Shown: piece by piece, positions 1 to 50,998 of the stretch | How the letters are laid out: every line of letters begins with the position of its first letter | Position numbering within the stretch: the stretch's first letter is position 1 | Source: Tubiluchus corallicola | Lineage: Eukaryota > Priapulida > Priapulimorpha > Priapulimorphida > Tubiluchidae | Length of the DNA: 64,000 nt | Direction of reading: 5' to 3' | NCBI GenBank assembly: GCA_030141605.1 | Contig: JAQGDQ010000048.1 | Coordinates: forward strand, 186,001 to 250,000 | Made by a program: the position numbers and the translations under genes | The notes under the pieces: model-generated | Seen by the model: the letters and a program-made list of their open reading frames with translations, nothing else | Databases searched by the model: none | What the model was told of the DNA's origin: nothing

Positions 1-75
1 TGGTGCGATGAGGTGGAGTGGTATGGTGTGGTGCAGTGTGGTGTGATGGGGTGGAGTGGTGTGGTGTGGGTTGTG
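1..75. repeat. GT/GA-rich minisatellite cut by the left edge
   Basis: The first 75 bases are degenerate repeats of short words such as ggtgtggtg and ggggtggagtggt. The array is truncated by the window edge. The short ORF across it is an artefact of the repeat. Confidence 0.7.
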
Positions 76-21916: not shown

Positions 21917-22056
<140 letters not shown>

Positions 22057-22999: not shown

Positions 23000-24610
23000 C
23001 TAAAGATATAAAAATAAGTGCTATAAGCAGCAGTTATTTAAAATAAACGATTAGATCCATCAATTCTAGCTTTGCACCGCTTAAATGTTGTGCTATGGCC
23101 AGTTAAATTTTGCATAGTTTCATCTTTCTCTTGAATGTAAATGGTGCCAATTGGCGGTGTGATTTTACAAAAATAATTCATGCTTACATTGTCTTACAAG
23201 TCTGCATAGCTCGGTGGCAAAGCATGCAAGTTTTAATATTACAGTCGGTGTTCAAGTTTTGATTAACACACAGTTGTTTAACATAAACTGCCAAGTTTAT
23301 TAGCTCTAATCTTTCACAATTAAGATTCATTATTTAAAGGATTCACACTGTTAGTTTGATTTACTGCCAGTTGAAACATTACCTCATAGTGGGGCAAGCA
23401 AACAACAACCAGCTGATATAAGACTGAAACATTGTTTATATAAACTGCATTTTAAACATGTACTCCCACTTTAAATTTAGGCAACAACCTTGAATTTTAT
23501 CATTAGATAGGTGACTTCAGTAGTTGAGCTGGTTATTGTTGACTGCTGAGCCACTTGTAATTGGTTTTTTCTTCTCGTGCACATAATCCTGGCTCTGTGA
23601 GACATGCTACACCTCACAAATCAAGTTAGCATCATGGTTATCACTTGATCGCATTTCACTTAACTACTAGCAGTTCCAAGAAATACGAGCTATAAGGATT
23701 AGACTGTATATCTAATCAGGAACATTAAGTAGGAGGTATATGAAATAAACTGCTTAAGTTAAGCACAAATGGATCAGGAACTAGCAGGCTAAATAATAAG
23801 ACTTCAGTGATTTTCATTACGGTGATTGCAAATTATATCCTAGGGCCTTAACAGGACTTCAAGATCTAAGAGATAATAGAAAATCCACATAAAGGGATCT
23901 AGACAAGATCCTGATCTAAGTTGATTGTATACCTATTAAAAGTATAACAGCTTAACTTATTTTTTGGAAGATTTCAACAAAAAAATACGTAACTTTCAAA
24001 ATAAACTTCTTCAACACTTTTTAGCATTATTTCAATTATGTCAAGCCAAATGCTCATTTACAGATATCAAAAATATCAGACCAGATGAATGATTAATCTT
24101 GAATTAATGATGGAATTAAGAGAGTTAATAAAACAAATTGACAGAACAAATGGCTGAACGAAAAATGCTATGACACAGCCTGTAAATTAGCCAAGATTAA
24201 AATAATAATAAAGTGTTAAGTAAGTCATAAATAGCAGTTTACGTGAATGAATGAAAGATAGAAAGGCAAGCCAAGCAGGATGATCCATAATGCCAAAAAA
24301 AGTTTAGCAATTTATCCAAACAGAAGGCAGCATATTGAGAATGGCTAAACAAATTGCACAAAACCAAAAGACCAACAGAGAGTAACATACTACTCAAATA
24401 TACTGACTAGACATGAGCACAAGATGAAAAATCAACCTGAACAAAATGATTGAGTTTGAGTAAGTGGTTAAAGGTTAAACCAGGCATATCAAACAAATCA
24501 TATAGCTGCAAGCATGCAATAGCTAATAAATTAGGCAATTCTGTAGTGTAAATTATATAAAAAACAATATTTCAAAATCATGGAATGCAAAATGTAGAAT
24601 ATTTTGAGGT

Positions 24611-24666
<56 letters not shown>

Positions 24667-30600: not shown

Positions 30601-33600
30601 GTACCATCATCGATTAAGCAACTATCCCCAAAGTACCAATCCTGATTTTAGCCAATTTTTCGCTGATGATGCCTGAATCCACATTCCAACAGAACGTAAA
30701 GAGGAAAATTCTCTTGCAATTTGCTCTAAGTACCCCCTTACTAGGAACTATTTTTACCAGTGGCGACCTGAATCTAAAATTTCTACCTGGAAAACTTGTA
30801 AAAGGCCCCAGTCAAAAGGAAACTACTTAATTTCATAACATAGCGAAAGGAATCAAATAAAAATAAAGGTTTTAGGCAAATAAAATGTTACATCTATTCA
30901 ATATTGTAGTACTTATTTATGTTAATGCGTGCATAATACAAATACTAGAAAATTTTAATAATCTTATAATAAAAACGAAAATCTCAATCATAGAACAACC
31001 AATCCAAGTAATTTACAGAGCATAATTTTAAATCGTTTTCAAAGTGTAATTAAAATTGGAACAAGCGCATTTTTAATATGTATGCACTCGACCATTCCTC
31101 GTTTTTGCAATATATAATTTCATTGCTGATCTTATGTCATATCAATTTGTAACGGGAATGTATATATATATATATATATATATACACGGAATTGAGAGTC
31201 GAATCCCGGTAATAATCGGCTTATTATGATTCTCGGTGATACAATGATTTTTTTATGTTCCTGCCAAGCTTATAATAGAACATAAGTAATCTCGTATGGT
31301 TACTACAAAACTCATTATTACGAAAAGCCCTAATTTGTGCGATGTTTTCTCAAAGTCTTGCCAATATAATTTTAACGTAAACAAACACTGTAATACGATT
31401 TTCAGTCTTTCTCTAAAACGTTTGTACAGTAAGTTGCCTGCCCCGTCTAGACAGTAGACACACTTCACCTTTTACCACGATGACCATGTATACCTACAGT
31501 TTATATTTGGTTTTACCTGGCATACCGTGCACTTGAAGAAACTAATATTGTAACTTGAAATAAAATACAGTAAGATTAGTGATTTGCTAATTCTCTCTTA
31601 TTATCTACCTATCTATTTATTTATTCTCTCCCCATATCTCTCTCTTGCTCTCGCTCTCCCTCTCCTCTCTTTCACTCTTTGTTTATCTAGCATTAAATTA
31701 TCTTCAAATTGTCAGTGTTATTTCTAATGTTTCTGAACTTATTTTTCGTTTAACACTAGCTGTCTTTATTAGTGTATTTAGTTAATAATGATCTACTTCC
31801 AGAAAGAAAGTGAAAATTATGCAATGCTGCCAACCAGCTATCAACCTTATGTATAAGTTGGTGTAACACAGTAGCCAGGTTACGTCAGGCTAGCCACCCA
31901 GCAATAAAATGCTGATAGCTTGGTTTACTAAAGGAAATATCTGGGATGATGAAGGGTTAAATAATTACAGATATGTTCACTGAAATCAAAAGACGACACG
32001 TGTAGGGAATATACCCATGTCAGTTAATTCTTTATTTCTAAAGTGATGGTCCATCACTTTGCGGCCACTGGGCAATTTCCCAGTATCCTGGTGGACCAGT
32101 CTGCCACTGATTTTTACCCATCTAATGGCTCATAAATACATGCAACCAGTGGGTTCAAAGCCTGTAACAGCAACCTAGAAGAACTAAGAAATGACTAGAG
32201 AATAGAAAAAAAATTAAGTTTCATATTTCTGTAAAAAAAGTTAGGCATTTACCACCTCAGCTGGTGCCGTATTTGGCCGTTCCTCTTCTTCACGTTTTTC
32301 TGCCACCAATAAATCACTTGCTGAACGTCTAGTAGGCACAAACGTCTTTCTTTCTGTAACCTCTTCAACCTTCAATTCCCTGAACTGACCACGCACGTAG
32401 CTGGCCATTTCCTTATTTTTCCTGGCTGTTGTCTTGTAACCAAAGTGAGGACTTTTTAGAGTATGAGCCTGGTCACAAAAATATCAAGCAAACTGAGAAA
32501 GTTGATAATGCAAAACTATACTGCATGAGAGATCATTAAAAACCTCCCAATGATGCAAATGTAAAACTTCTGCTGCTAAAGTAATATCCCTCAAAAACTG
32601 TTATAAATAATATTTATTACAATGAGACCTGAAAGGCTAAAACACTATCATATCAAATAGGATTTGAAATACTGATTGTTTTAAATTCTTGATTACCTTT
32701 TATTTGGGCCCTGCTAGTTTAGGTAATTTTAAGGTCCGCCATTTGATGGTTATCGTTTCGCGTCACACAAACTGCCCTCATTTATGTCATTGTGTAAACA
32801 CAATGGCTTACTAATGCAATGCATTGTTGTTGGTAAGTTCTGCTTATTATTTGTGGCACAGCTTTGCTTTATTACATTTTTAAAAAGTGCATTCATCAAA
32901 CGAAAACATTAACAATAATAAAGCAAATGAAAACATTTAGACGTAAATGCAAAGCACTAAGCTAATAAAGAGGTAAAAATCTTAGAGAAAAAACATAAAA
33001 ACTCACATGGTATTCTTTTTTGGAGGGTATATTTTGTTGTACAGGTTTAGCATCACCCCCAGATAAATTAGAGTCATTGCCATCACTAGTCAAACACTCA
33101 TCATTGCCACTTCCACTGTGAGGTGTTTTTATGAGATATTTATTGAGAAATTGTTTATAGTCCAAGTTGCCATAAGCATTGATCGGCTGAATGTACCAAA
33201 ATGTGTTAAACTGCAAAGGAAATTATAGTAACCACTAATTAGTAAGGATAGCACAACATATATAGCAGTAAATACAAGTCTTACCATGTAAACTTTATAA
33301 GATACTACAACAGGGTAAGATTTTCTTAACAATTAAAGAGCAAGTCAAATAAAATAGTAGCATACAATGGTCAGGTGTTCTAGCAGAGTAATCATCATTA
33401 CAATTATAGCACCAATCAGGATTATCTCGTAATAAATTAGTGCACCTAATCATCATAAAAATCTGTATAGTTATTTGACTAGAAAATCACATTCTTATAT
33501 TTTTAAACTTAGAGAAATCTTAGATGTCAACAGAGGCCAAACAGTAATTAAATAGGAATTTAATAATTAGAATATATCACATACAAAAATTTATTAAAAA

Positions 33601-36600
33601 TGCATTTGTTTTTAACTAGTGAAGAAAGTTGTTGCAACTGACTGCAAATGGCATGAAAATTGTGTGAATTTTGCAAGGAAGATGCAGTGCAACCATGACC
33701 ATCTCGCAAAGAAAGCCAGTGCTACCAGAACAAGTTTGTCACACATCACCTGTACGTTAACTGGCTTAATATACTGAAAAACCTTAACATCACTTGGTTA
33801 ACTTACGGCACTAGGCAGCTGCAATACCACATAAAACTTTTTTTGTTACACTTTGTAGACAGAGCTATTCCTCAAAAATAGTTCTCCTGCCAGTCCATCT
33901 CCAAAACGTTTTTTGTGAGTAATCTCAGGAATTCTCATGATCCAAAATGTTCAAAATTGAACAACTATAACTACATATAATAATAAGGTTGTAGTCTTAG
34001 TCAACTCAGCCAGCATACAATTTTATTTTTCACTTTCATTTCATATTTTATCGGTCAATTTATGGTTTATAATCAAACTTGCCTCTCTTTCTTCCTCTCA
34101 ACACACTTATTAGGATTTTTCAATAATCAAATCAAAAGTTGTAACAGTAACTCAAGCTTTTAATTACTACAGAACTAATAGGCAGTGACACTGGTGCATT
34201 TGAGATGCTCGTGACATCATCAAGCATTTTAAACATTCAACTTCCCCTTAGAAAAAGGTTATGAAATCTATGAAATCTACATTTTGACAACCAATTACAT
34301 TTTGCCTTTAGTTTAACATTAATAAGCATGATTTCACCTACTCCACTTTCTGATATAGGACAGTGGTGAAGATGTAATATCTTCTTCAAGTCTGACTTGC
34401 TGACAACTCCAAGTTTAGCATAGTCTGACTTTCTGCACGACTTCATCAAGTTCTTGTAATTTCTGGTCACAAATTTCTTCATCATCTCTTCGCCTTCTAG
34501 ATGAGCTGCAGCCACTACCTAAGTACAGTCATATACAACTCATAATATGATATAACTTAATCTACTTGCCTGTCTGTGTCTATGTCTGACGGCATTCATC
34601 TTGTATCACATTACAAACATCTGTACGACAAAAGTGGTCATTCTTAGGATTGCAAATTGCTACATGTCATCAGTTTCTAGAGAGTGGATTTTACATTTTT
34701 TGGTACAATATATGAGCATTACATCTTTGTTTGAAATCATGACTAAGTTTGCATTTTTTTCAGCACCTTTATTGAGCACTGTTACCTGTTGTGACATGCG
34801 TAGCTGCTGTATTCATTAATTACCAAAAATGATAGCAAACTAAACATGTAGCTCAGTAGCACACTTAAAATGGCAAACCAATTTCCATTGTTCAAACTTA
34901 GACTTGCATTAATATAAATTCAATAAACAGCAGCTCTAATGTCACGCATGGTATCTGCTTAGACCATTCCGCAGTTCCAGAACCAGCTGCCCGGCTGAGC
35001 TGAAAGCGCACGAATCAAAAGTTTGCGACCCTGTTTTACATCAAAGTGATACACGAAAAACTTGTGATGTTCATCTGGGAAAATGAAAGGCAGCATTCTG
35101 GTTACAGTCACTGAAAGTTTTTAATTTTTAATGCTCCAGCAAATGTGCTGTTACAGCCATATTTCTACAGAAAATCAAGACAATTTTCAGATGCTTCACA
35201 AGTTAGCAGTCTCTAGAAGTGGTCCAGGCACTCACAATTCCTGAGACTGTACTGTGATGAATTTACATGTACAGATAGTTCCTGGGACTGCAAATGAAGA
35301 ATTTGGATGTATAGACAGTTCCATGGATACCAAACTTGAAAGACAAGAAAAATGAAAAGTTGAAATACAGCTCGAATTTGAACCAGGGACCTTCTTGGTC
35401 TTATTTGGCAGATGTGTAGAAAACTGGGTGCTAGGCATTGATCAAGGCAGCCACAGTTCAATTTTTGTAGCTGGCCAACCAAATTCAGCATTTCGAATGT
35501 TAGACCATACTACACCATAGAGTCATACTAACTAATTAATTACATCAATTTAGATTTTGATCAACTTTGAGCCTGAAGTCCTGTGGGTTGATTAATTATT
35601 TATTATAATGTATCAGCTGATTATATATAAATTGTATGCCAAAGCACAGGGAATTAATTTTATTGCATCTTCACTAAAAAACTATAATTTCACAGTAAGT
35701 TTCACAGCACGGCAACTGACACTTTTTCATTAATGCCCAGCATACTGATATAACAATCATATCATTGAGTAAAATAACTACTGAGCCTTTTTTCTAATGA
35801 TATGTTAGGCAGTTTCTTGTAGTCCAGTAGTCCGTGTAGTCTGGCAGTCCGGTAAGTATATAACAGTTATACATTTTCTGTAATAATTGGTAAATTGCAA
35901 CCAGAAATGTGCTTCCCCATCCATGTCTACAAAAATTTTTACATTATAGCCTGCTATCAACGAGCAAGAGTTTGTGAAACTGGGCCATGGATTTAGCACA
36001 AGTTACCGAACTATGACTGTGTAATGGCGCAAAATCTCTAATGTTGGATAAAAATGTACAGTGTTCCCTCGCTACTTTGCGGTTGCGTTTATCGCGGACT
36101 CGCTGTTTTGCGGGTTTTCAAAAATATTAATGTAAAATAATTATCACGGTATTTTTGCTGTTTCACGGATTTTTGCAGTACTCTGTCTAAAGTATTTTAG
36201 CACACAAGTAGTACATATTGTACAGTAATGTATAGATTTGATGAATTTTGCATAAAAAATCACAAAATGTATAAAGATATATTAAAAATAATAATTCTAA
36301 TATTAAAAGAATATTATAAATCATAAAAAAATTACTATTTACAGTAAATAGTGTATTTATTCGGCGGATGAATACACACCAAAAACGAAATGTAGTACTT
36401 GTGCCCGCTTGAGATGCTACTTGCCGACGTGAGATTGTACAAAACACACGATTGGTTGATTGATAAGTATAGCGTCCCTACTTTGCGGAAATTCACTTAT
36501 CGCGGGCGGGCCTGGAATGGAACACCCGCGATAAGTGAGGGAACACTGTATATGACAATCGTGAAATGTGCTACCAGTCCCAGAACCCGTATGGATGGGC

Positions 36601-39600
36601 CAAACAAGACAACAAGACCAAAAATTTTACCAACAACCAGTTTTCTCACAAAAATCAAGCACAGCACATTCCTCCGTTGCTGGTAGTATAGATCGTGGGC
36701 TTGTGACATATCTATGTTTAAACGAGTAATTATACTTTTTAATCGAATTATATTCTTTACAGCTCGGGAAACTCAGCATAATGACTATAACTTGCGGTTT
36801 AATACAGAAAATGATACTAAAACATACAACACTTTTAATAAGACTTTCTTATCTTACAACATCCACATGCTTAAATGCGAAGATAAGTTCGCACACAGAA
36901 TTAAATTAAACAATAAATGATAAAGTATTCAAATAAGTATTTAAAAATATGCCAAACCTCTGCTTGTGACTCTTCCAACAACATTTCCTCAATAAAAGTG
37001 CTGTAATCTATGAAGCCTCTTTTTGAACGATCTTTGATTAGAAACAAAAACTGCTCATCTGTAAGTTTAAAATTGAATGTTTCTAAAATGCGGCGAAAAT
37101 CAGTAACTCGCACCCAACCATGCCAACCCTTGTCAAATTCTTTAAATATCTGAAATGCAAAATATTAGTTATGTTATAGACTTGTGGCCAATCACCTACA
37201 CAGTCAGTATGTGATATATATTTAATTATTCCAGGAAACATGTTATTAAGTTCACAAAGAAACATTTTGATGAATACTAGTTATTTTTAACAATAAGCAA
37301 TCCTGCAATCAATGTTTGTTTACCCGTAGAAAGTTTGCAATACTTACAAGTGATACATTCCGTACGTTTCTCTTAAAAAGTTCCTTTAATTTTTCTCTAA
37401 CTTCATATCCGGTCATCTGCTTACTAGCAATGACAGACGCTGGTTTGTCTTCATCCCGTAATGCCAGCAGAGTTTCATAATAGTTTATCTTGCCATCTTT
37501 TACTGGTATGCCCACTCTGCAATATCATAATTGATATTTCTCACAATTAAGTTGTTAAATAGTCTTAACCCTTTTACTACGGAAGGCGGCACACTGTTCC
37601 TTAAGTTTTCTTGCAAGGGACGGAAGGTGGTAGACTGCCGCCCAAGCTTAGCACTAAGCGCAGTTACCCAGGTTTGTTTATTTCACTGCTACGGCCATGG
37701 AAAAACATTGTAGAAAAATTTAACAGTCGAGGGATTGGTGTTGTTTCGTAACAAGTAATGCTAACCAGCCAGTCAGCGTCTGAAGTCAGATGCATTCCAT
37801 AACACTGTACTGTATAATACGTTCTTATGCAAAATTGCTCGTTGATAGTTGGCGAAACGTGCATTTGTTCCGCATTTTAAATAAAATAATTGTGTATTAT
37901 GAATTAGTAATACAACTTTTCTGAAAATTGGCTTCTAAATATAAGAATGTGCTTATTTGTGTCGGTGTGCACATGCAAGCACGCATGAGTGCATATATGT
38001 GTACGCAGATGTGTGTGCATGAGTATAAATAAAACTAATATTCAATATTAGTGTTTAATAACAAATGGTTATTTGTTTGTTTATAAGATTCTGTTTTAGT
38101 AACACACCACAAGTAGTTATTGTCAAATGTGCAAAAGCCAATGCAGCCCTGGTAAAAAGCAACAACGTAGTGCAAGGGTTGTAATTATAAGTAATAAGAG
38201 GGAATTATTTGGACAATCCATGTACAGTTTTAGCTGTGATTACATGTTACAGGCATCTACATATTTCCACACTAAATCAAAAATGTGTATTAAGGGTGAA
38301 AAGGTAAACAGACTTATAAAGTACTTTGGTAGTACATTTCTTACATTTTAAAGATTTTAGGGCTTTCCTAAGACAACAGTTTTAACCAAGCACGCACTTG
38401 TGTCCTACAACGCTCCTAAAAATAGTGGAAAACAATCTTTTTTTGCTAACGCAACTTGTAGCTATACAAAACTAATTTCTGATTGACCCAGAACTGACTG
38501 CATTGCAGCAGGGAATTACTGTAATAAAAACCAACGCAAAGGCTGCTAATAGGGAACAAAAGTGAGCATCAAAATCTATAGAGAAAATCATCCTAGCCAT
38601 CCTTCCCAATATTGGACTGGGTGATAACATTTTGCTAGAGGAATGAAAAAATGAGCAAAAGTGCATAACCATTTATTACGTCAAAGTACTTTGAAACACT
38701 GGGGAAACTATCATGATCTAAAAATCTTCTGTAGAAGCCTCATACAGAGTCTGCCTGTAATGGTGACATGCAGAACTCAAGACTCTCCTTGCAGCATGTT
38801 TTGCAGATCTCTCACAAGCTATATGTTGAATACCATTTGATGTTTTTTAACATATTAGCATCCACTTTGTCTATCAAGACAGCTCCAATATGTTTGGCAG
38901 TGTTGAGATCTGATGAATTTCCAGGAAATCAAAAAATTACTCCAAAAGTTTTCAGGCGACTAATTGGATCATATCCCTGAAGATGCAAGACTGTGAGACA
39001 TGCAAAGCTTTCCCACTAAATTTTCAAAGGTATGATAGGTCCTCAGCACTTATTTCATGTAATAAATTGTTGTGTACTCATTGCTGAATATACATTCTAA
39101 TAACTTCATAACCTAAAAACAAAAGTTAAATTACAAAATGATAGTGTACCTGTCCAAAATGGCATTAAAGTTGTTTGGTGAAAACACGAAACCAAGGTTC
39201 TGTAGTATCCTATGAACACCTTTTATAGACAGCATACCATCATGTGCAAAATCATACCTCTGAAAAGCTGTGTGCACTTCATCAAACCTCGTATGTAAGC
39301 GAGCCCTGCAAAAAATGGAAAATTTTAGTATTTGGTATTTCAAAAGCATTTTCGACAGTATGTATCACTGTTTAGATTGGTAAAACAGGTTACTCATATA
39401 AAAATAATTTTGGCAAGTGCTAGCTTTCTTTTGCTACCACACCTGAGTCTCTTTAGTATTTTGCGTTGCCAGTGGTCCTCAAAACCTTTTGCAACTGGAG
39501 ATGCCGGTTTATCAACAATTGGCTCGTTCACCTGGTTGCTCAAATCTTTCCAGAGATTGCCTTCCAATGCCTTATGTTTCTTGTATGTGTCACCCTAAAC

Positions 39601-40555: not shown

Positions 40556-43500
40556 TAAAGAGTGCTCTATGTATTAGCTAATGCAAAAACTGCATTTTTT
40601 CATTTTCCACTAACCGACTCCCAGGCAAATTCGCGTTGCCCAGGTACCATTTTCATTGTTTCAGGTGGCCAAGGTAATGGGCTATCAACAGTCGAATTGT
40701 CCTAGAATAAACAGCAGCAAATGTTAGCAAAAATTAGTATACGGCATAAGTAATATACAAATTCAGTATATTCACGAAACTTATTTTGCAAAAACATTAT
40801 GTTTTAAATAGACATTCTTAACATCTCGTGTGGCATTGATGTCAGTTGTTTATGAGTTGTTAATAGCAAAAGAACTATGCAAAATCTTCTTGATTCTCAT
40901 ACAGTTAGCTACTTTGTTCTTTATTGTTTATTCTTCATAAACACATTTTGTTTAATAATTCGTTAGCCTTGCAAACTAGGGTCAAGAAACTCACAGGTAG
41001 GGGTGAGCATCAAACGTTTCGAACTCGATTCGAACGCATTTTGTAATTCGAATCCGATTCGAACCTAACATTATAAATTCAAATAATTCAGCACTTTAAC
41101 CACATACATTCTTTTGTCATTAAAACATTTTAAACATCACGCAATTAGCATACTTTAGTAGGTGGTGGTTTTTGGTGCAATTGCTAAACTAATTGCTAGT
41201 GCTTTTATTGCAGAACAAAATCGAGTAATAGGGCCCATCTTTTGTAAAACTGCTTTTTACTGAAGGCACAATAATTTGTTCGAAAATCTTTCCAACTCAA
41301 TTTGAATTTGATTCAAATTCGAAATACTGAAATTTGATTCGAATTCGATTTCTGGTAGAAAATGCTCACCCCTACTTACAGGGTGGGTAGCCCTGGGTGG
41401 AAGAAGGGCAGCAGTGAGGCAAACTCTAGTTGAGATGCCATGGGCAGAAGGCGTTGTTTCATTTTTGTTACTCTGCATCTTCTCCAAGGGCTCTTATTTC
41501 TTTTCAGAATTTTCCCACAGACGTTTAGGTATTATGGGAAAGATGTGCACCTTGTATTTTAAAAAACTGGGACTCCTGAAGCGATGTGGCAACAGGCATC
41601 ATTCTGTTTTTCATTTATCCTGCATCTCCTCTTAGGGCTCTTACTTTTAATTTTTTTCAGAAGTATTTAGGAATCATGGGATAGATAAATCCGTAAATTC
41701 CTTAGCAGTCCAAGATAGGCGCCAAAATGTGACAATCAGGCCAACTAGCATTACATCGCTACTCCTCCTAAGGCTTTCATTTTTCTTCAAACTTTCTTCA
41801 CAAATTAAGCCTGGTAGGGTAGATGAGCAATGTGCACCTGGGGTTATAAAAGGTTGGGATTCCTTAAGGGCCCCAAGATAGCAGCCCAAAGCCAGAAAAC
41901 GGGGGCATGACCAGGTCATGACATGGGCAAAAGTATTAAAACAAGGGAAAATCAAGCAAGTTGGAGTAACGTAACTTGCAGGGCAGGTACCTGAGGTGTC
42001 GCTTCTTTCTTAGGCTCTTTCTCCTAATACAGTTTTTAAGCTACAGCCACAATTTTTGGTAAGTGACTAGATAGGCCCAAGTTTTTATGCATGGTTGAAT
42101 ACGGTTTATTTGGGCAGTGAAAAAATTTTCCTCTAAGGACCAAAAACTCAAAATGAATGGGTTGGCACAGATGTTTTTCCAGTCTTGAAGAATAATGGCT
42201 TATAGTACAATAAATGAATGGTCTCAATGAGACGACTAAACCGAACTGTATAATTAGTACCATGCAAGGAATGTATGGGTGATCTCTGACCTCACTAGGG
42301 GCAAAGGGGGGGTAGAGGAGATAAATGCCTTCCAGTATCAAGTGTCAACCGAAACTAGCTTGCATCAAATCAAATGAAAGGTCTCAATGAGATAAACTGA
42401 ATAATGTAAGTTAGTAGGAGATTGGTTGGCCTATGACACATGAGTCACATTTGAAAAGTTGTTGCAATTTCATTGTGAAAAACAGCATCTAGGTAATCAA
42501 ACAACACAAATTCAATTAAATCAAAATTATAACTTTCAAACACAAGCTGACAGCTAACGTCAGAAACATTGTCAACCAGTTTGCAATTATAATTGCTACA
42601 TTATAATTGCTGAAGATTACTAAGAAAGCATGCATCAAATTAAATAGATTTAATTAAACAGAAAAAACACAGCTTGCAGAGTTTTTTAGTGAATTTATTA
42701 CAAAACAATAACAGCTTTTGAAAGTTTACCATAATAGATTCACATCAAAGATTCATAATAAATGCACATGCGTTACACAGTAAACAACAAATTTCAGTGT
42801 AAAAACAAAACAAATACATGAATAAAACATAATGAGAGACAGAATAATCAGAAAGGTATGTATGAGTTCAAAAAAAATTATAAATGTCAGAAGTTAGAGT
42901 GCTGAAATTAGACATTTAAGAAATAACAGAAATACTCTCTAAAACAGAAATTTAGAATTATGATTTTCTAAATGATAAATTCATGCATTTAATCAAAAGT
43001 AAAATAACGTGGATATTAAGTTTACAACATCCCTCAAGTTTTTTCATACAAACTGTTTCAGTAAAAGAAATTAGGAAATAATTATTTGTAGACAATAAAT
43101 GTGTACATATTTGCTGATAAACACGAGCTGATAATAGATTGGCAGAGGAAATTTCAGTAAACGTAAACAAACACATGCAAATAGTAAAAAGGCTAGAAAA
43201 GACTTATAAAAGTTTTTTAATTAAGTTTGTTTCTGGCTGTATATTGGCCTATGTCTCAGGGGCTGATGGCTGATAAGTACTTTTCTACACACTCGCACTG
43301 CACCGGGGTGAAGTTCTTGACACCTTTCTCAGACAGCATGTGAGCTTTACAGGAATGACTACCCACGGACATTTCGTGTTCTATTTCAGGTGGTATTCTT
43401 TTTCCGCCAGAGGTGGCAGGGGGAGGGGACCCTGGACGAGGAACTTGTTTTTCCCTGGTGGGTGCAATCTTAGCCTAAAAATATATAACAAGCATACAGA

Positions 43501-46500
43501 ATCCCACAAAAAACAATCAGATTGCAATACTTACTGATAAGTCGTCACTTTGACAAAAATATATGTGATACAAAACCTATGACTCGCTTACTAAAAACTG
43601 CAGTATTGTCTCAGATACCGGAAGGCCACATATACAATATGTAATTTTGTACCATATACAAATGAGAATGCATCTTATATAGCCAACTAGTCAAGTTAGC
43701 TGCCTATATTGTCACATCAAAACAATGTGTAAAAGCAACTAAAAGTATAAGATACAGCAATGTAAGAGACAGATACATATTATAAGTACAGCAAAGAAGC
43801 AACTGATGGTCTGTTTTTAATTGTCTAGCATGCATTTGCACATGCATCAGTAACTTCTTGCCCTCACTTCTTACCTGTACTTCTGATGGCCCTCCAAACA
43901 GATCAACGAAGCGTTGCTTATGAACAAAGTTACTATGCTGCGGATCGAGGTCCATGAGGAGCTGTCTGAGACGATCATCAGGTATTCTGCTCATATGCAG
44001 CATAATCAAAATATCACGCAAACGTAGGCGAGTTATTTTGCCAGAACCATCCTATTCAAAAATACATCAGTCCATGTCAAAAATAAATTATTCTTCCTAA
44101 ATCAAAACAAGAACACAATCTGTCATGTCGTGGGTTTATGATTAGATGATGACCATGGGTTCTTAAAGGGGGCGAAAAGTGAATTTTAAACTATACCCCA
44201 AAGAACTTTCTATACAAAGTTATATTAGTTAACTTTATGCCTACTTGTTTGAAAGACGTATATAACTGGGAAAGAAAATTCTTAATAATTTAAAATATTC
44301 GCGTCACCTGGTAAAATGAAAATGAATGCATTGCCATCCCAGTACGCACAAATAATTCTCCAAAAAACACATTATTGACCTTACTAACGATATAAAGTAA
44401 TTTAAAGTTACTTCAAATTGGTGGATGTTTTGACTGCATCAAAAACTATCGTAAGATTCAGTTTCTGTGACAGGAGATGATTCATGTAACAGCTTTTGTT
44501 TTTAAAATAAGAAACATTTTTCAAAATAGTTAACATCATATGTGTAATTGAGTATAGTGCTGATTGACATTAAAAACTTCGATGAATTCAAAACTTGTCA
44601 CTTTTTCACCAGTGGTCTATAACTCAAGGATATAAAAGGCATAATATTGCCTCCATGAAGTCGCCAATGTTTGAAAACTTAGGAATTGCATTTTGTTTTA
44701 GTAAAATGAACAGTATAATTTTTTGACAGGTAACCAGTTGCCAATCTAATAATTAACTAAGTCTTGCTTGGCTTCTTTTCCAAGCAATCGCACAACGTGG
44801 TCACAGAGTCAATTACAAGGAAAGTTCAAATTAAATACCAGTTTAATTTTCAGAATTAGCAAAGCTTGATAGAAGCACTTTGCAGATCCATCAAACAGTG
44901 TAAGTAGAAAATGGACGTAAAAAAGTATGAAACAAAAATGCTTAAGTGGAAATGGGCTGTTAACACACAATTTTTGTATGGAAATCCAACACGCTAGCTG
45001 TTAGACTACAAAGGATCTTCATGAATTCAGATGTTTACTAAATACTAAACACATTTGTGAAACATGCCAAGTTTAAACACGACGTTTACCCTGAAATTAA
45101 TTAACTGATTTTTGCATTCATTTAGCTGTTTAGAAAAAAACTTACATCATCTTCTAACAGAATTCTTTTTCTTTCTAAAGAGTTATAAAACTTCCTTAAA
45201 CATTCCTATAACAGGCTCAACGAACACTTTTTCTCGATGATGTTTCGCGAACATTTTAACACTGATATTGGATCTTCTTATCTTTAACCTGTGATCTTGA
45301 GGTCCAGCGCCCACTAAAATTGGCAAAACTTATACCATACCATTCGTCTTACTTGACACTGGAAACATTTGTGTCCGCGACCCCCTCAATTTTGGTCTTG
45401 GTTTTTGCCCTTTACCAGAAACTTTTCTCCTATGCAAAGGGTCCATATTCAGCTACGCACAAGATCTCAAACCCTCCTAACTACACACCAAAAATTGTGG
45501 CCCTAGCTCAAAAACTGTAGGAGGAGATCCAGAATAAAGAAAAAAATAAGCCCTACAAACTCCATGTTGTTAAACCCGCCAAGGGTGACAGGTTACACAT
45601 ATACATAAATACCCCTAGCTAGGGAGTGCGTCCTGTGAGTTTCATCATCCTAGCCCTGCACATGTGCGAGTTATTAAAGAAACAAAATGGGGTAAATCAA
45701 GAAGATTCTGCTGTAAGCAGAATCTTAACTATTCCTTAGAGAAGAGTGTGCCATTAATGCTTATTGTTTCAAATTTTGTTTAATGTCATCTAAGCTTGTT
45801 TCAAATGACTTCTGTATAAAATGGCTGCACCTAACAGTCATTGCAGGAGTTTAAATCTACAAATTTTATATAATATTATCATTAACACAAGCTCTGTATA
45901 CAGTAAAATACATCATGCAAGTGATACTTAATTTCAAGAATTTTTTAAATGTTATCTATGAAGAATGTTTTCTTGTGCTTTAATCGATAATTTAGGCACA
46001 ACAATTAAACATTTATAAAAGATGTACTTCAACATAAAGCCGAAGAAGGATAACGACACAAACAGAAACTACAAACTTCTGATCCAAGCCCCTTCTGATA
46101 CAGTCCCTAACAATGATATGATTTCGCAAACCATGGGCATGAACGATAACATGCTTCCAATCTTGGCAAGACTTCTAAAACAGATGCTTTTTATATTCGT
46201 TATCAAAATAAGTTATCTTAAGTTTTTTGCACGTATTTACACTTCAGCACACTGAAAGCCGAAATGAGCATTCAATCGCAGATATATATATATCAGTTTT
46301 TACCAACATAATGACAACATTGTCATCAGTATAGTTCTCAATAGCTTTCTCAAAAAATAGCAAAAATAAAGCAAACAGCACCTGCAGGAAACAAAAATTA
46401 TTATAATAAATTGCAAATATTGCAGACCAGTGCCAGATAACCTAAACAAACTTAAACAAACTTATGCAAACTGATTGCAATCATAGAAAGCTCTATGTTC

Positions 46501-49500
46501 GGGTCAGATAAGATTTAATCAAAATAGGCACAGATCGACTATATATCCTGCTACAACTGACAAAACTCCCTTTAATTTATGATAAGAAGACACAGAATGC
46601 AAAAATAAGCAAAACTTACCCTATCATAAACATCAAAAGCAAATGAAGCTGAGCCATATTTGGAGCGTATGCGCTGACCAAGTTGATGAATGAATCTTTG
46701 ATATTCCACCATTGAGGCATTGTTAAAAGCTTGACCCAGAATCCAAGCATTTCTACAAGAAATATAACTTATATATGCTCAAAATATATGCACATTTGTA
46801 ATTGACAAGTTAATATTAAAAAAATCATTTTAATCAAATTAATTAACCTACAGTATGAACCTACTAGGTTCTCTTTAAGCAAAGTAATTTATGATAGCAT
46901 TCTGAAACCATTATACTGTTATTCTAACTTTTTAGTTTCTATTCTTAGTATAATTTTCGAAAATTTTGCAACAACAGAACACTAATTTCAGCTACTATCG
47001 TGCCACATAACTGATGCTCTTATAGTTAAACAAATGTTTGCTGTTATAAAAATATACTAATCAACTGTTAGTACTCCAATTTAGCTACTGGTTTTAAGAA
47101 AGAAAAACGATGCAGAAAAATTGGAACATACTCTTCCACTCCACATTATAAGTTATAGCTTGATGAATAATTCTGTAATGATGACATGGTACTCATCAAA
47201 CCATATATAAAAATAAAATTATTTGTGACAAGAGTGAGTAAGAGCTTTATTTAATACTTTGCTGTAGGTAATGTAGGCCCATATGTATCCTGCTCCTTTT
47301 TTGCGTCTCTTGGTGAGGCAACTCTGTGGGGAGACATTGGTTTTGGAGCTGCCTGTCTATTCTGAATGTAAAAACCCTACAAGCAAATAAACAAAATTCT
47401 AAAAGATACTCTGCGTTCCACAAGAAATGAGACCGAAATTCAAGAATAATGGCAGAACTGAGATTTTGAATAAGCCAACAGTTTCTTAATATGCAAGTCT
47501 CAGGCAATTCGTAACAAACAATTTAGTAATAAAGTGAATCAGAAAATGGTAATTTCGTTATATTACTAAGCTCACTATTTACTAAAAAAGGTATTTAGCT
47601 AGTATTGGCAAAAAGCTATATAATAAAAATGGTGGTGAAAATTCAGTTCTATCAACATGGAATAATTCAATTTTCACAACCAATGAGCCACTGAACAGGC
47701 AGAAGTTTCTCAATGATGTTTGGATGTACCTCTTTCCATGATCAAGTCTCAATTAATTAAGTTTCGACCCATGAAGAGAAATATCTTTTACTTACCTCAA
47801 TCTCCTTCTCATTTCCAAAAAGCTCCAGGAAACGTTGCTTTGATATGTGGTTGGTATTTTGAGGATCAAGAGTGACAACGAGTTTTTTTAAAGCATGTTC
47901 CGGAAGCCTTACATTTAGGGATGGAACAAATTCTGTGAATCGCATTCGAGTGATAGCGCTACGTGTGCCCTGACCACAATAAACAGCACAAATTAGCTCA
48001 AATAACTGATACTACATTGCAAACAATCACGATGTGTAGCACATCCTGGAGTAATAATCATCAGGGGATGGCTACACACGCAAGTGAATCTAAAAACTTC
48101 CCATCATATTAATGCCTTCCTGTAAATGGCTGGGGGGCCGCGTCATACATAGGCAGAGTGGCTGCTTCCTTGTCATTTTAATTATTGTTACTATTGGCTT
48201 CTAGTCTTAATTAGTTGTCTATTTGGTATCATATTGTTGTTCCGTTTTCTCTAGTGTATCATTATACTTTGTCATTACTTGCACATTAATTCCTCTTGGG
48301 CGGCCAACTTGTTTCTAACTTGTTTGAATTGTTTATATTATACAAGCTTTGTGATTTTGAAGTTCGTTGTTAGTTGTCTGCCTGCTGCTCGTTTACCTTT
48401 GTTTAGCTAGTACTTTTTTTTTGCAAATCTGCAGACTGTAGACTAGTATTTTGTGTAGTAGACTAGTACTTTGGTATTTTGGCTTTTTGTGATTTGATGT
48501 GGTTTTGGATGCAAATTCTTAGTTTTTACTAATGGCTTAAGTTTTCTGATTTGTCATTCTTCATTGTTATTATATTTTTTTGCATTTGTTGCATCATGTG
48601 TAAAATGAAGTCTAGTCATTTATATTATTTCAGTATTTAGCATATTTTTTCATAGCAAACCATGGAACCATGGAGGTAAACAGTTACTAACCACTTCTGA
48701 TATAGACGATTAAAGTGAGTTGTGAATCAGCTTCACTCTCACAACTACAGCATCCTGCCAACTTTAAAATAAAAATTCCTCCTAAATCAAATATGCCTTC
48801 ACTGCCACAGAAACTATGAAATACCAGCTGATTAAAAAAATCTTTCACTCTTAAAAGAAATTGAATATAGGGCCTCTGTTTCAACACAAACTATCTCACT
48901 AACTTCAATTATCTGCTTTGATCTAAGATCTTTTTCAGTACCACTTTGTACATGAAGTTTTTCACTGTCCTTACTAAGGCAGGTGCAGCATAATCGAGCA
49001 TACATAGAAAATGGGAAAATAGAAATTAGCATAAATAGAAACTTTGAGTTCAAATCTAAATGAGCAATATAGCAATGCGCAAAACTAGAAGCAAAGGAAA
49101 TATATCTCAACTTCAGCGAGAATTTTATTTAGCCGCGCTATTCTAAGATTGCATCACCATTACACGGCAAAGAAGCTAGCTTCCTGCCATGTGTCATAAC
49201 ATGTATGCTGAGCTACCACAAACCCAGGCTACAGGTCAACAGATACCAGTTCCAACTTGTTTAATCAACAACATATCCTGTACCTACTAAATCAAATCAG
49301 TAAAGAGGTCTCAATCAGTTAGTTTATCTGACAGTGAAATACATTAGATAAGACCAGGGCCCGGTTTCATAAAGCTGTCACTAACTTAACAGTTAAGTAA
49401 ATGTAATAACGATGTCATTAACTTATGAAGGCTTTGTGAAACAAACTCCAGTATATATCCTGAACTCAATAAGCCTTGTAATATAAAGCTTATAAATAAC

Positions 49501-50998
49501 TACAATTAAACAGAAATCATTAGTTCTCACTTAAATCAAATGATGTTCATGGAAACAATTGTGTGTGTTGATAAAGTTAGTTAAGAAAAATGCCAGCAAC
49601 TCACATCGTCTGCACAAATGTCAAATGCTTTGGACGCAGAACCAAAATTTCGGCGTATACGCTCACCAAGACATCTGATCAACTGACGTTCTGCTTGTGC
49701 TTCTTCATCAAGAAAACCTTGTTTTTGAAGAAAGGCAGACCTAAATAAGCAAGTGAAAGCACCCTTTACAACTAAAAGTACATTTAACACTGCAGAGTAT
49801 AGACTGGTTTTACCAGTTTAGTCAAACCTTGTCCTTGAGAACTAACTCTCAATGAAAACTTGGTGCTTAATGATTGATAGATGTCTGGTTCAATTATTTA
49901 TGTTTTCTTAAAATTTTAAGGCAATTATATATGCATCACTATCAGCACAAATGAAATCGGTTTGGCAGACAAATGTTTATAGCGACCTACTCTCACTGAC
50001 ATGCCTTTTCGGAGCTGTCAAGGGGGTACAGAATGAACAGAGTGAGACTTCACATTAGATGCGCTTTAATTTAAATTCAGGAATAATTATTTGGATGTGT
50101 TATATTACTTTTTATCTACTTAATATTTAGGGAATTTAACTTTTGATTTAACATAACCTAATTAAGTCTGGTGATTAAAAACAATGATGCATAATTGTTG
50201 TATTGTAACATTACTTACAAGTTTATGTTCTCAACTTACTTGCTTCGCAAAAATTTCTAACTAGAATTCAACATATGTAATGGATAAAAACAATATTGCA
50301 CAATTTACATGAATTCTCTCAATTGCTCCTAGCCAACCAATATTCACAGTATGACCTAAACCATAACAAAATTTAATCAAAAAAATTAAAAGGAATGTCT
50401 TCGCTACCATTGCTCAACAAAAGATAATGGTGATGGATGAAAAGTCGAAAACTTAAGTCACAATCAAGTGGCTTACATTCTAAAATGAGTTTCAATGGTA
50501 TGATTTATTATAAAATAATAATTATTAGTGAAAAAAAACAAAGATAAAAGTAGTGTCTCATTTAACTGAGTGAAATTCATGGATTCGTTGATTTACAGGC
50601 GTGAAAGCATTGCAAGCTAAAATGTGTGTTGCTTTTTTCATGGTCTCAAAAACTGTTTGTAGTGTGCAAGGATAAGGTACAGCAGTGCAATACTTAGTGA
50701 TAGTAACATTATGGAAGACCAAAACTACCTTAACTAAAATGGTTTTTCTAAATTACCTTTTACCATACTGATACGGACTATAGCTCAAGTCATATTGGCC
50801 TGTCCGACGATCTTGATCGGATGAGGTATGAGGTCTTTCTCTCCCAGGAACATTATCTGATGTCTGTGGTCTACTTTCAGCCATGCTTGACTGTGGACGC
50901 TCTTGGGCACTTATAGGCACAATAGGCTCAGGTGACATCCCTCCAGGAGTACGTGAATTCCCGCCTTCAACAGCTAAAGCACCCCCTTGGTTTGCCAT
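22715..50998 (-). CDS. EFCAB6-like: EF-hand repeat protein, EFCAB6-like; 20 coding exons, 1068 aa if fully spliced
   Basis: The predicted product is a large protein made of repeated paired helices with EF-hand loops, most like EFCAB6, a protein of ciliary and sperm axonemal doublet microtubules. Coding exons in transcript order are listed separately; they join to 3207 nt with one stop. Residues 1-81 are a low-complexity Pro/Ser/Thr-rich head. EF-hand-like units follow at about 82-184, 224-327, 440-615, 616-700 and 888-1068, with linkers rich in Lys, Pro and Ser. Many loops keep Asp at position 1 and Gly at 6 but lack Glu at 12, so strong calcium binding is doubtful for most. Human EFCAB6 is longer (about 1500 aa). 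Donors of exons 4 and 7 are weak. The family call rests on domain layout and similarity recalled from sequence, not on a search. Confidence 0.8.
23000..25516. other. Intron 19 of the EF-hand gene
   Basis: AT-rich sequence with a (TA)n tract at 24615-24664. No nested gene was recognised. Confidence 0.6.
24615..24664. repeat. (TA)n microsatellite
   Basis: An uninterrupted TA dinucleotide tract of about 50 bases within an intron. Confidence 0.95.
25517..25698 (-). CDS. EF-hand gene coding exon 19
   Basis: This exon encodes about residues 914-974, with the helix-loop stretch LYKHDALEKGRVHYCNLVR, an EF-hand-like unit with a degenerate loop. It enters in phase 1 and leaves in phase 0. Confidence 0.88.
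25935..26060. repeat. (GAAT)n-type microsatellite
   Basis: Degenerate tetranucleotide repeats (gaatgaatgaat, gagtaaatgaat, aacaaacgaa). The Phe/His/Ser-rich minus-strand ORF across it is an artefact. Confidence 0.9.
26126..26203 (-). CDS. EF-hand gene coding exon 18
   Basis: This exon encodes about residues 888-913 (WKKVYKVCRRADTDDKSTL), the first half of the EF-hand unit completed by exon 19. It enters and leaves in phase 1. Confidence 0.85.
27196..27244 (-). CDS. EF-hand gene coding exon 17 (49 nt)
   Basis: A micro-sized exon encoding AVIDILNKQLHMLMNK. The acceptor is tttatag and the donor gtgagg. Its phases (0 in, 1 out) are exactly those needed to join exons 16 and 18, which is the main support for so short an exon. 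Confidence 0.75.
27831..27980 (-). CDS. EF-hand gene coding exon 16
   Basis: This exon encodes about residues 822-871, a Ser/Lys-rich linker with no EF-hand. Both boundaries are phase 0, so the exon could be skipped without changing frame. Confidence 0.85.
27981..32255. other. Intron 15 of the EF-hand gene (4.3 kb)
   Basis: No nested gene was recognised. It holds (TTTAG)n repeats at 29890-29915, a G run of about 16 at 29978-29993, a possible single transposon end near 30440-30490 (cggcgcctactgta), a (TA)n tract at 31161-31184 and a CT-rich tract at 31625-31680. Confidence 0.55.
32256..32468 (-). CDS. EF-hand gene coding exon 15
   Basis: This exon encodes about residues 751-821, a highly charged linker (KVEEVTERKTFVPTRRSAS, then EKREEEERP). 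Both boundaries are phase 0. Confidence 0.88.
33007..33210 (-). CDS. EF-hand gene coding exon 14
   Basis: This exon encodes about residues 683-750. It starts with a degenerate EF-hand half (PINAYGNLDYKQFLNKYL) that pairs with exon 13, followed by a Ser/Gly/Asp-rich linker. The donor is gtgagt and both boundaries are phase 0. Confidence 0.88.
34318..34518 (-). CDS. EF-hand gene coding exon 13
   Basis: This exon encodes about residues 616-682, with helix-loop-helix CRKSDYAKLGVVSKSDLKK. The loop keeps Asp and Gly but is otherwise degenerate. Donor gttaaa is weak, but the frame continues correctly into exon 14. Confidence 0.85.
35385..35495 (-). repeat. Possible tRNA-derived SINE remnant
   Basis: On the minus strand a B-box-like ggttcaaattc lies inside aaggtccctggttcaaattc, preceded by a tRNA-arm-like stretch. 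The A box is not clear and no flanking duplication was defined, so this is tentative. Confidence 0.35.
36059..36548. mobile_element. pogo/Tigger-like non-autonomous DNA transposon (490 bp)
   Basis: The left end is cagtgttccctcgctacttt and the right end, inverted, is cagtgttccctcacttatcg; the first 13 bases are identical. Both are flanked by TA (36057-36058 and 36549-36550), the Tc1/mariner-superfamily target duplication. CGCGGATT/ATCGCGG-type words inside each end resemble Tigger termini. No transposase was seen. It sits in the intron between exons 12 and 13 of the EF-hand gene. Confidence 0.8.
36958..37149 (-). CDS. EF-hand gene coding exon 12
   Basis: This exon encodes about residues 552-615, a full EF-hand pair: FDKGWHGWVRVTDFRRIL and IKDRSKRGFIDYSTFIEEM. 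Both loops have Asp1 and Gly6, but position 12 is Asp or Thr. The donor gtttgg is weak. Confidence 0.9.
37348..37516 (-). CDS. EF-hand gene coding exon 11
   Basis: This exon encodes about residues 495-551. It begins with the second half of the EF-hand pair opened in exon 10 (VKDGKINYYETLLALR) and then the next helix (EVREKLKELF). It enters in phase 2 and leaves in phase 0 at gtaagt. Confidence 0.9.
39150..39305 (-). CDS. EF-hand gene coding exon 10
   Basis: This exon encodes about residues 443-494, with the EF-hand unit FQRYDFAHDGMLSIKGVHRI. The loop has Asp, Asp and Gly in place but Gly at position 12. Phases are 2 in and 2 out. Confidence 0.9.
39443..39594 (-). CDS. EF-hand gene coding exon 9
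   Basis: This exon encodes about residues 393-442, a linker ending in a charged helix (EDHWQRKILKRLR). It enters in phase 0 and leaves in phase 2. Confidence 0.87.
40398..40550. repeat. (TATC)n/(TA)n microsatellite
   Basis: Mixed tatc and ta repeats in the intron between exons 8 and 9. Confidence 0.9.
40615..40701 (-). CDS. EF-hand gene coding exon 8
   Basis: This exon encodes 29 residues (about 364-392), a Pro/Trp-containing linker (PLPWPPETMKMVPGQREF). Both boundaries are phase 0, so it is skippable in frame. Confidence 0.8.
40998..41374. mobile_element. hAT-like MITE (377 bp) with 8-bp target duplication
   Basis: The left end is taggggtgagcat and the right end is its exact inverse, atgctcaccccta. 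Inside each end are attcgaa-rich stretches. The flanks are ctcacagg (40990-40997) and cttacagg (41375-41382), 7 of 8 identical, the 8-bp signature of hAT elements. No coding content. It lies in the intron between exons 7 and 8 of the EF-hand gene. Confidence 0.85.
41470..42135. repeat. Degenerate tandem repeat, units of about 130-170 bp
   Basis: A block with (c)tctt(a)gggctctta near its start, then ttaggtatcatggga, aaaactgggactcct and caagataggcgcc, recurs at about 41480, 41620, 41755 and 42000 with divergence. The last unit carries ccacaatttttggt, which recurs in opposite orientation near 45485, so the family is also dispersed. Confidence 0.6.
43256..43474 (-). CDS. EF-hand gene coding exon 7 (7'), with optional read-through terminus
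   Basis: If the donor gtgggt at 43366-43361 is used, the exon is 43367-43474, encodes a Pro/Lys-rich linker (residues 328-363, ending IPPEIEHEMS) and joins exon 8 in phase 0. If not, the frame stays open to a TGA at 43256-43258, adding 36 residues (start VGSHSCKAHMLSEKGVKNF) of coding-like, GC-rich sequence and giving a truncated protein. Both are compatible with the sequence. No canonical AATAAA was seen just downstream. Confidence 0.65.
   Translation of the reverse strand, partial: AKIAPTREKQVPRPGSPPPATSGGKRIPPEIEHEMSVGSHSCKAHMLSEKGVKNFTPVQCECVEKYLSAISP
43875..44051 (-). CDS. EF-hand gene coding exon 6 (duplicate of exon 3)
   Basis: This exon encodes 59 residues (about 269-327). With the end of exon 5 it forms the most canonical loop in the protein, D-R-D-G-S-G-K-I-T, lacking only the acidic residue at position 12 (Arg). 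The second half, LLMDLDPQHSNFVHKQRF, aligns with LVVTLDPQNTNHISKQRF in exon 3. Phases 0/0, as in exon 3. Confidence 0.9.
45390..45540 (-). repeat. Dispersed repeat, inverted copy of the 42.0-kb unit
   Basis: accaaaaattgtggccctag at about 45487 is the inverse of the matching segment near 42045-42060 (tagctacagccacaatttttggt), and similarity extends over the neighbouring cagttttt and tcctccta words. This is an interspersed repeat in the intron between exons 5 and 6. Confidence 0.55.
46304..46381 (-). other. Candidate 78-nt cassette exon between exons 5 and 6
   Basis: The segment is open, a multiple of three, bounded by ctgcag and gtaaaa, and fits phase 0/0 between exons 5 and 6. It would insert 26 residues, a hydrophobic run then EKAIENYTDDNVVIML, into the EF-hand loop. 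The hydrophobic start argues against it, so I leave it out of the main model. Confidence 0.25.
46620..46752 (-). CDS. EF-hand gene coding exon 5 (duplicate of exon 2)
   Basis: This exon encodes about residues 224-268. HQLGQRIRSKYGSASFAFDV aligns with RCLGERIRRNFGSASKAFDI of exon 2, and both exons enter with one base of a split codon and leave in phase 0. It can therefore follow exon 4 (through its weak donor) or exon 1, but not exon 3. Confidence 0.88.
47251..47376 (-). CDS. EF-hand gene coding exon 4, possible alternative last exon
   Basis: After acceptor ttgtag the frame reads FYIQNRQAAPKPMSPHRVAS, then on to KKEQDTYGPTLPTAK. A weak donor gtatta after 47258 lies in phase 2 and would join exon 5 correctly (39 codons plus 2 nt). 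Without it, the next codon is Tyr followed by TAA at 47251-47253, which overlaps an AATAAA on the minus strand (47246-47251). This looks like a switch between a short protein of about 225 aa and the long form. Confidence 0.7.
   Translation of the reverse strand, partial: GFYIQNRQAAPKPMSPHRVASPRDAKKEQDTYGPTLPTAKY
47796..47969 (-). CDS. EF-hand gene coding exon 3
   Basis: This exon encodes 58 residues (127-184): the end of one EF-hand-like loop (GTRSAITRMRFTEFV) and the next (LDPQNTNHISKQRFLELFG). It duplicates exon 6. Phases 0/0, donor gtaagt. Confidence 0.9.
49357..49448. repeat. Small foldback repeat of the CCCGGTTTCATAAAGC type
   Basis: gggcccggtttcataaagct at 49357-49376 is mirrored imperfectly by gctttgtgaaacaaa at 49431-49445, giving a hairpin of about 90 bases with taacttaa words between. 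It lies in the intron between exons 2 and 3. Confidence 0.55.
49605..49740 (-). CDS. EF-hand gene coding exon 2
   Basis: This exon encodes about residues 81-126: a Gln/Glu-rich helix (LQKQGFLDEEAQAERQLI) then LGERIRRNFGSASKAFDI leading into an EF-hand loop whose second half is in exon 3. Acceptor tatttag, donor gtgagt. Confidence 0.9.
50757..50998 (-). CDS. EF-hand gene coding exon 1
   Basis: This exon encodes residues 1-80 plus two bases of a split Arg codon. It starts MANQGGALAVEGG and is Pro/Ser/Arg-rich with repeated RPQTS/RPHTS words, ending YSPYQYGKR, with no domain. The ATG is 10 bases inside an exon that seems to start at 51008 (acceptor aaacag). Upstream coding cannot be excluded but none was seen. 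Confidence 0.85.

What the first reader, a model, noticed from the sequence alone, without database searches (positions are those of the whole stretch)
43256..49740. Duplicated three-exon module inside the EF-hand gene with matching phases
Exons 2-3 (LGERIRRNFGSASKAFDI; LDPQNTNHISKQRFLELFG) and 5-6 (LGQRIRSKYGSASFAFDV; LDPQHSNFVHKQRFVDLFG) are clear paralogues with identical intron phases and each is followed by a Pro/Lys-rich exon. Because exon 3 ends in phase 0 and exon 5 needs two bases, exon 3 cannot splice to 5. The modules must be bridged by exon 4's weak donor, or used as alternatives after exon 1.
Basis: partly seen in the sequence, partly recalled or inferred. Interest (0 to 1): 0.7.

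Follow-up and report, generated by a model that had tools for sequence, protein, structure and literature searches.

The report
Duplicated EF-hand cassette in EFCAB6-like gene
An animal gene related to the cilium protein EFCAB6 carries two old copies of the same two-exon EF-hand unit whose reading frames hinder joining them directly, so the cell probably uses one or the other, a known kind of gene-splicing choice.

Summary
The observation mostly holds. On the minus strand, exons 2+3 and 5+6 encode paralogous EF-hand pairs (38% identity over 104 columns), entered in phase 2, split in phase 0, left in phase 0. The Pro/Lys-rich exons that follow (4 and 7) show no detectable homology, so a two-exon duplication is shown, not three. 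The unit sits at the 5' end of a gene model running to 22715 that is EFCAB6-like (PDB EFCAB6 2e-61; Pfam EF-hand_11 above cut-off).

Joining exon 3 to exon 5 at the main sites gives a stop at codon 194. The proposed bridge, exon 4's donor AAA|GTATTA, scores like a median GT (-5.25 bits; 18 other predicted donors 0.71 to 7.82) and is followed at once by TAA and ATTAAA/AATAAA: exon 4 looks terminal. Exon 1 is the best-scoring first exon of the phase exon 5 needs. Best reading: exon 1 splices either to 2-3-4 (225 aa) or to 5-6-(7)-8... (882 or 939 aa). No transcript or orthologous genome was available. New member of a known kind (duplicated, alternatively used EF-hand exons).

The parts
50757..50998 (-). 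exon 1 (coding part): ATG, 80 codons + 2 bases, low-complexity N-terminus; donor AAG|GTAATT, leaves 2 bases
   Evidence: donor 3.2 bits, coding score +22.3 in frame, negative in the other two; in-frame stop upstream of ATG
49605..49740 (-). exon 2: first half of EF-hand pair, copy 1; needs 2 bases, ends phase 0 inside the EF loop
47796..47969 (-). exon 3: second half of EF-hand pair, copy 1; phase 0-0; donor GAG|GTAAGT
47251..47376 (-). exon 4: Pro/Lys-rich tail ending in TAA; read here as a terminal exon
   Evidence: acceptor 7.3 bits, coding +7.5 in frame (-4.3 and -11.0 in the others); its phase-2 donor at 47258 scores -5.25
47246..47255 (-). ATTAAA and AATAAA poly(A)-signal words overlapping the exon 4 stop codon
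46620..46752 (-). exon 5: first half of EF-hand pair, copy 2; needs 2 bases
   Evidence: first 13 residues, upstream of its first Met, match those of exon 2
46620..46673 (-). exon 5 from an in-exon AG: alternative phase-0 acceptor that would allow 3 to 5 splicing
43875..44051 (-). exon 6: second half of EF-hand pair, copy 2; phase 0-0; donor CAG|GTAAGA; with exon 5 it makes the loop DRDGSGKITRLR
43304..43474 (-). exon 7 read as internal: Pro/Lys-rich linker, phase 0-0, donor CCG|GTGCAG (1.1 bits)
43256..43474 (-). exon 7 read as terminal: runs to TGA
   Evidence: its last 15 codons have no coding signal (-1.4), a weak argument against this reading
40615..40701 (-). exon 8, phase 0-0; can follow exon 3, 6 or 7 in frame
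22715..39594 (-). exons 9-20 of the EFCAB6-like gene (39594-39443, 39305-39150, 37516-37348, 37149-36958, 34518-34342, 33210-33007, 32468-32253, 27980-27831, 27244-27196, 26203-26126, 25698-25517, 22999-22715 with stop)
   Evidence: gene model; EFCAB6 similarity. Exon 17 (27244-27196) is weak (-2.4)

Best explanation
This is the 5' end of an EFCAB6-like gene in which a two-exon unit coding one EF-hand pair was duplicated in tandem long ago (shown). Both copies accept the same two bases from exon 1 (shown by phase), and cannot be joined to each other in frame at their main sites (shown). The first copy is followed by an exon with a stop and poly(A)-signal words (sequence shown, use inferred). 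Inferred mechanism: the splicing machinery pairs exon 1 either with exon 2, giving 1-2-3-4 and a short 225-residue protein, or with exon 5, giving 1-5-6-(7)-8-...-20 and the long protein of 882 or 939 residues. Copy 1 has a degenerate EF loop and copy 2 keeps DxDGSGxI (with Arg, not Glu, at position 12), so the choice may also swap a calcium-insensitive for a possibly metal-binding module, as reported for alpha-actinin.
For: Paralogy and equal phases. Joining 3 to 5 at the main sites breaks the frame at codon 194, while the single-copy isoforms tested stay open: 1-2-3-4, 1-5-6-7 to its TGA, 1-5-6-7i-8..20, 1-5-6-8..20, 1-2-3-7i-8..20, 1-2-3-8..20. Exon 4's donor is at the median of 3723 GTs against 0.71-7.82 for the 18 other predicted donors. 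Exon 4 reads as coding in its frame (+7.5 against -4.3 and -11.0 bits with a codon model trained on exons 8-20 only) and ends in TAA overlapped by ATTAAA/AATAAA. Exon 5 appears to be entered in phase 2 from upstream coding sequence: its 13 residues before the first Met match exon 2's (score 12; p 0.0024 in 200,000 shuffles; 8 of 7746 sampled stop-free peptides of the window do as well). Exon 1 is the best first exon leaving two bases upstream of exon 5 (29.3 with the clean model; its own inner ATGs 18.6 and 14.3; next independent candidate 10.6; donors above 0 bits only). Fewer changes at codon position 2 (34 of 102) than at 3 (67 of 102), with both copies open and well spliced, points to constraint on both.
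Against: No transcript, protein or orthologous genome was available, so use of either junction is not shown. AATAAA occurs once per 561 bases on this strand, so a signal at the stop has a chance of several per cent. Splice matrices are human-like and typed from recall; the organism is unknown. Exons 7 (as internal) to 19 came from scans that required donor scores of at least -1.5, so their donors are not an independent yardstick; those of exons 1, 2, 3, 5 and 6 (3.2 to 7.8) were fixed by reading frame and homology. Other first exons for exon 5 cannot be excluded: weaker candidates exist at 62359-62292 (10.6) and 56020-55983 (8.9), and a tiny one would not be seen. The in-exon acceptor at 46673 scores as well as exon 5's main acceptor, and the automatic best path used both modules through it.
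Confidence: 0.48

Rival explanations
1. Two genes: exons 1-4 are a small complete gene (225 aa), a tandem paralogue of the 5' end of the EFCAB6-like gene, which has its own unseen promoter and first exon before exon 5 (or starts at exon 8).
For: Exon 4 looks like a true last exon with poly(A)-signal words; 1-2-3-4 is a complete ORF; exon 8 contains an in-frame ATG.
Against: No first exon leaving two bases scores well from 47800 to exon 5 (best -0.1, inside exon 4; next -2.0); exon 1 is the best one upstream (29.3, next 10.6). Only about 500 bases separate exon 4 from exon 5.
Confidence: 0.25
2. Both modules in one protein, through exon 4's GTATTA donor or through exon 5's inner acceptor at 46673.
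For: Both give open frames, 1082 and 1016 aa. EFCAB6 chains match in several EF-hand stretches, so another module in series would be ordinary.
Against: Exon 4 donor -5.25 bits, median of all GTs of the strand. The 46673 route discards the first part of exon 5, whose start is conserved with exon 2.
Confidence: 0.13
3. Plain mutually exclusive cassettes inside the long form: 1-2-3-(7)-8 against 1-5-6-(7)-8, exon 4 being minor or unused.
For: All four forms are in frame; exon 3 has the highest-scoring donor of the model (7.8).
Against: Exon 4 has a strong acceptor (7.3 bits, reached by 0.11% of AGs) and coding signal, so it is unlikely to be idle. Skipping 5-6 would need a mechanism.
Confidence: 0.1

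Closest known systems
EFCAB6 (EF-hand calcium-binding domain 6, a ciliary doublet microtubule inner protein)
   Same: Exons 8-20 (without 17) match EFCAB6 chains at 2e-61; the two best stretches follow the chain order, residues 958-1242 and 1316-1496 of 1497; PF08976 EF-hand_11 above its cut-off. PMC8595878 (three passages seen) places EFCAB6 at the inner junction of mammalian doublets.
   Different: The single-copy model here has at most 939 aa against about 1500; weaker stretches match other EFCAB6 modules too, and no one-to-one counterpart of the tandem pair could be named.
Tandem duplicated EF-hand exons of ACTN1/ACTN4 (PMC9741552, passages seen)
   Same: Homologous exons used as substitutes, one copy of the EF-hand losing calcium binding.
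   Different: Substitution is established there and only inferred here; here the unit is two exons and copy 1 is followed by its own stop exon.
Mutually exclusive terminal exon clusters, e.g. Drosophila pip (PMC9013439, passages seen)
   Same: Tandem duplicated exons, including 3'-terminal ones, chosen one at a time.
   Different: Here only the internal exons are demonstrably homologous; exons 4 and 7 are not.
OGDH exons 4a/4b (PMC7969005, start of abstract in the listing only)
   Same: Mutually exclusive exons giving calcium-sensitive and -insensitive forms.
   Different: Single exons of an unrelated enzyme.

Membership tests
EFCAB6 | best sequence match to EFCAB6 among solved chains | tested here: met
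   of 22 sequences at E 0.001 or better the first five are EFCAB6 (2e-61 to 2.2e-57), then an EF-hand protein of 275 aa (3.3e-26), then RIB57 (1.2e-6). The 682-aa query lacked exon 17 and exons 1-7
EFCAB6 | Pfam EF-hand_11 (PF08976) domain | tested here: met
   37.5 bits, cut-off 21.7. That this family is typical of EFCAB6 is recalled
EFCAB6 | the two duplicated modules themselves are EFCAB6 modules | tested here: inconclusive
   two-row profile has EFCAB6 as top hit (1e-5, 28.8 bits) but no stretch passes on its own, and a myosin light chain follows at 2e-5; single module 1: EFCAB6 top at 0.015; single module 2: the 60 hits shown of 262 are mainly calmodulins
EFCAB6 | about 1500 residues with the full series of EF-hand modules | tested here: not met
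   single-copy models 882-939 aa. Upstream of exon 1 (51-64 kb) the search with a recalled human sequence gave one hit only, plus strand, E 2.2. The model may be incomplete, and length may vary among animals
EFCAB6 | location inside ciliary doublets | not testable with these tools
   needs experiment
mutually exclusive duplicated exons | tandem homologous exons with equal flanking phases | tested here: met
mutually exclusive duplicated exons | joint inclusion breaks the frame | tested here: inconclusive
   broken at the main sites (stop at codon 194); open through exon 4's GTATTA donor or the acceptor at 46673
mutually exclusive duplicated exons | one and only one copy in each mRNA | not testable with these tools
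   no transcripts held
calcium-binding EF-hand | canonical 12-residue loop with acidic position 12 | tested here: not met
   no canonical loop in either module; copy 2 keeps the first eight positions (DRDGSGKI) with Arg at 12; Pfam EF-hand_6 above cut-off (27.2 against 25) in the protein with copy 2 only

The most novel reading that the evidence does not exclude
A frame-enforced switch at the start of a ciliary EFCAB6-like gene: choosing EF-hand copy 1 also ends the message early at its own poly(A) exon, so the same decision selects both a calcium-insensitive module and a short stand-alone protein, while copy 2 (better loop) is committed to the long microtubule inner protein.
Probability: 0.3. 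Interest if true: 0.45.

Novelty: new member of a known kind. Interest (0 to 1): 0.3.

Why it matters
If true, it adds a case in which an old exon duplication couples EF-hand choice to early polyadenylation, in a cilium protein for which I saw no such splice forms in the listings of three paper searches (10 of 11 papers, 10 of 28, 8 of 10,926; titles and abstract starts only, plus passages of PMC8595878). It is testable by simple junction counts. It does not need any new principle.

Tried and rejected
Bridging by exon 4: rejected as the main route (donor at the median of all GTs). A hidden exon of phase 0 to 2 between exons 3 and 5: the best candidate other than exon 4 and its shortened forms scores -0.15, against 14.9 to 39.6 for 14 exons used as a yardstick (nine of the 14 had also trained the codon model). 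Homology of exons 4 and 7: not shown, though too short and biased to exclude. A third copy of the module in the window: no match better than E 0.66 outside the four exons. Recent duplication with shared introns: none seen by blastn. Relatives in viral contigs (92 pattern matches, none confirmed) and in prokaryote genome contigs (167 pattern matches, none confirmed); no eukaryotic collection was on hand. tRNA scan (bacterial code) and Rfam at gathering threshold: nothing. Pfam on seven plus-strand ORFs, one hemerythrin-like and six that look like transposon remnants: no match at E 0.01.

A fault found on re-checking: the codon model was trained with one exon (25698-25517) in the wrong frame. 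I repeated the coding scores and the first-exon scan with all of exons 8-20 in frame; the figures in this report are the repeated ones, and the margin of exon 1 over the next first exon fell from 35.4 against 9.6 (which had left that exon out) to 29.3 against 10.6. The best path was not recomputed.

Full report
What is there. The window is eukaryotic DNA by its exon structure (34% G+C). The gene lies on the minus strand. Exons 1 to 7 are at 50998-50757, 49740-49605, 47969-47796, 47376-47251, 46752-46620, 44051-43875 and 43474-43256 or -43304. Exons 2+3 and 5+6 encode 103-residue EF-hand pairs with 38% identity over 104 columns, 79.7 bits; under the settings of the control 75.5 bits, against at most 21.6 for 2000 shuffles of module 2. 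No third copy was seen in the window.

Phases. Both modules need two bases at their start, are split in phase 0 within the EF loop and end in phase 0. The split falls after 45 codons in module 1 and 44 in module 2. Exon 3 joined to exon 5 at the main sites shifts the frame and stops at codon 194. A third duplicated exon is not supported: for exon 4 against exon 7, 1017 of 2000 shuffles score as well. Of 102 aligned codons, 46 differ at position 1, 34 at position 2 and 67 at position 3, and blastn sees no DNA similarity between the modules, so the duplication is old and both copies appear constrained.

The gene. A codon-and-splice scan of the minus strand extends the model to exons 8-20, ending at 22715. 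The translated exons 8-20 (without exon 17) match EFCAB6 chains of solved cilia at 2e-61 to 2.2e-57, including the C-terminal end (residues 1316-1496 of 1497), and carry Pfam EF-hand_11 at 37.5 bits against a cut-off of 21.7. The model is shorter than mammalian EFCAB6 and I call it EFCAB6-like. A profile of the two modules has EFCAB6 as its best hit (1e-5) but without any stretch passing alone; module 2 alone finds mainly calmodulins.

Exon 4. Its donor that leaves two bases and keeps the exon, AAA|GTATTA at 47258, scores -5.25 bits; 53% of the 3723 GTs of that strand do as well. The 18 other predicted donors score 0.71 to 7.82; those of exons 7-19 came from scans with a floor of -1.5, so exons 1, 2, 3, 5 and 6 (3.2 to 7.8) are the fairer comparison. 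The acceptor of exon 4 is reached by 0.11% of AGs, and the exon has coding signal in its frame with a model trained on exons 8-20 only (+7.5 against -4.3 and -11.0). The stop TAA (47253-47251) overlaps ATTAAA (47255-47250) and AATAAA (47251-47246). AATAAA occurs once per 561 bases, so this is suggestive only. I read exon 4 as a last exon.

How exon 5 is reached. Its first 13 residues, before its first Met, resemble those of exon 2 (score 12, p 0.0024 in 200,000 shuffles; 8 of 7746 sampled stop-free peptides from the window score as well), so translation probably enters it from upstream in phase 2. The best first exon leaving two bases between 64000 and 46760 is exon 1 (29.3; next independent candidates 10.6 at 62359-62292 and 8.9 at 56020-55983; donors above 0 bits only). 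Exon 1 to 2 and exon 1 to 5 both make an arginine codon at the junction. Hence the reading that exon 1 is shared and chooses between 2-3-4 (225 aa) and 5-6-(7)-8... (882 or 939 aa). This choice is inferred, not shown.

Exon 3 to 7 or 8 is also in frame. Exon 5 has an in-exon phase-0 acceptor at 46673 that scores 1.38 against 1.26 for the main one, so exon 3 to exon 5 is not strictly impossible, and the automatic best path took it. Exon 7 has a modest internal phase-0 donor at 43304 (1.1 bits) leading to exon 8, and otherwise runs to TGA at 43256. Two separate genes are not excluded.

Calcium. Neither module has a complete canonical loop. Copy 2 has DRDGSGKITRLR, good up to position 8 but Arg at 12; copy 1 lacks the pattern. 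Pfam EF-hand_6 passes its cut-off in the protein with copy 2, and no family is found in the one with copy 1 up to E 1. This resembles alpha-actinin, where one of two swapped EF-hand exons keeps calcium binding (PMC9741552, passages seen).

Verdict. A real, old, tandem duplication of an EF-hand exon pair, of a well-known kind, with a somewhat unusual stop exon behind copy 1. Ordinary in principle, worth a junction count.

Noticed in passing
15871-16113 +: Exon-like ORF matching myohemerythrin (3.2e-5 in solved structures; no Pfam match at E 0.01), which fits an invertebrate such as an annelid, sipunculan or brachiopod (recalled distribution).
   Followed up: partly
46931-46985: Imperfect palindrome of about 54 bases between exons 4 and 5 (self-match on the opposite strand, E 0.005).
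   Followed up: no
41000-41380 and 36060-36545: Two elements with inverted ends (ggggtgagcat...atgctcacccc; gtgttccctc...gagggaacac), MITE-like, in introns of the EFCAB6-like gene; seen by eye.
   Followed up: no
1076-1336 and 21834-22116: Long microsatellites, seen as ORFs of one or two residues (ATT-type and TG-type).
   Followed up: no
3547-4763, 9427-10409, 17036-17865 +: Plus-strand ORFs that look like non-LTR retrotransposon remnants by eye; no Pfam match at E 0.01 for the six tested.
   Followed up: partly
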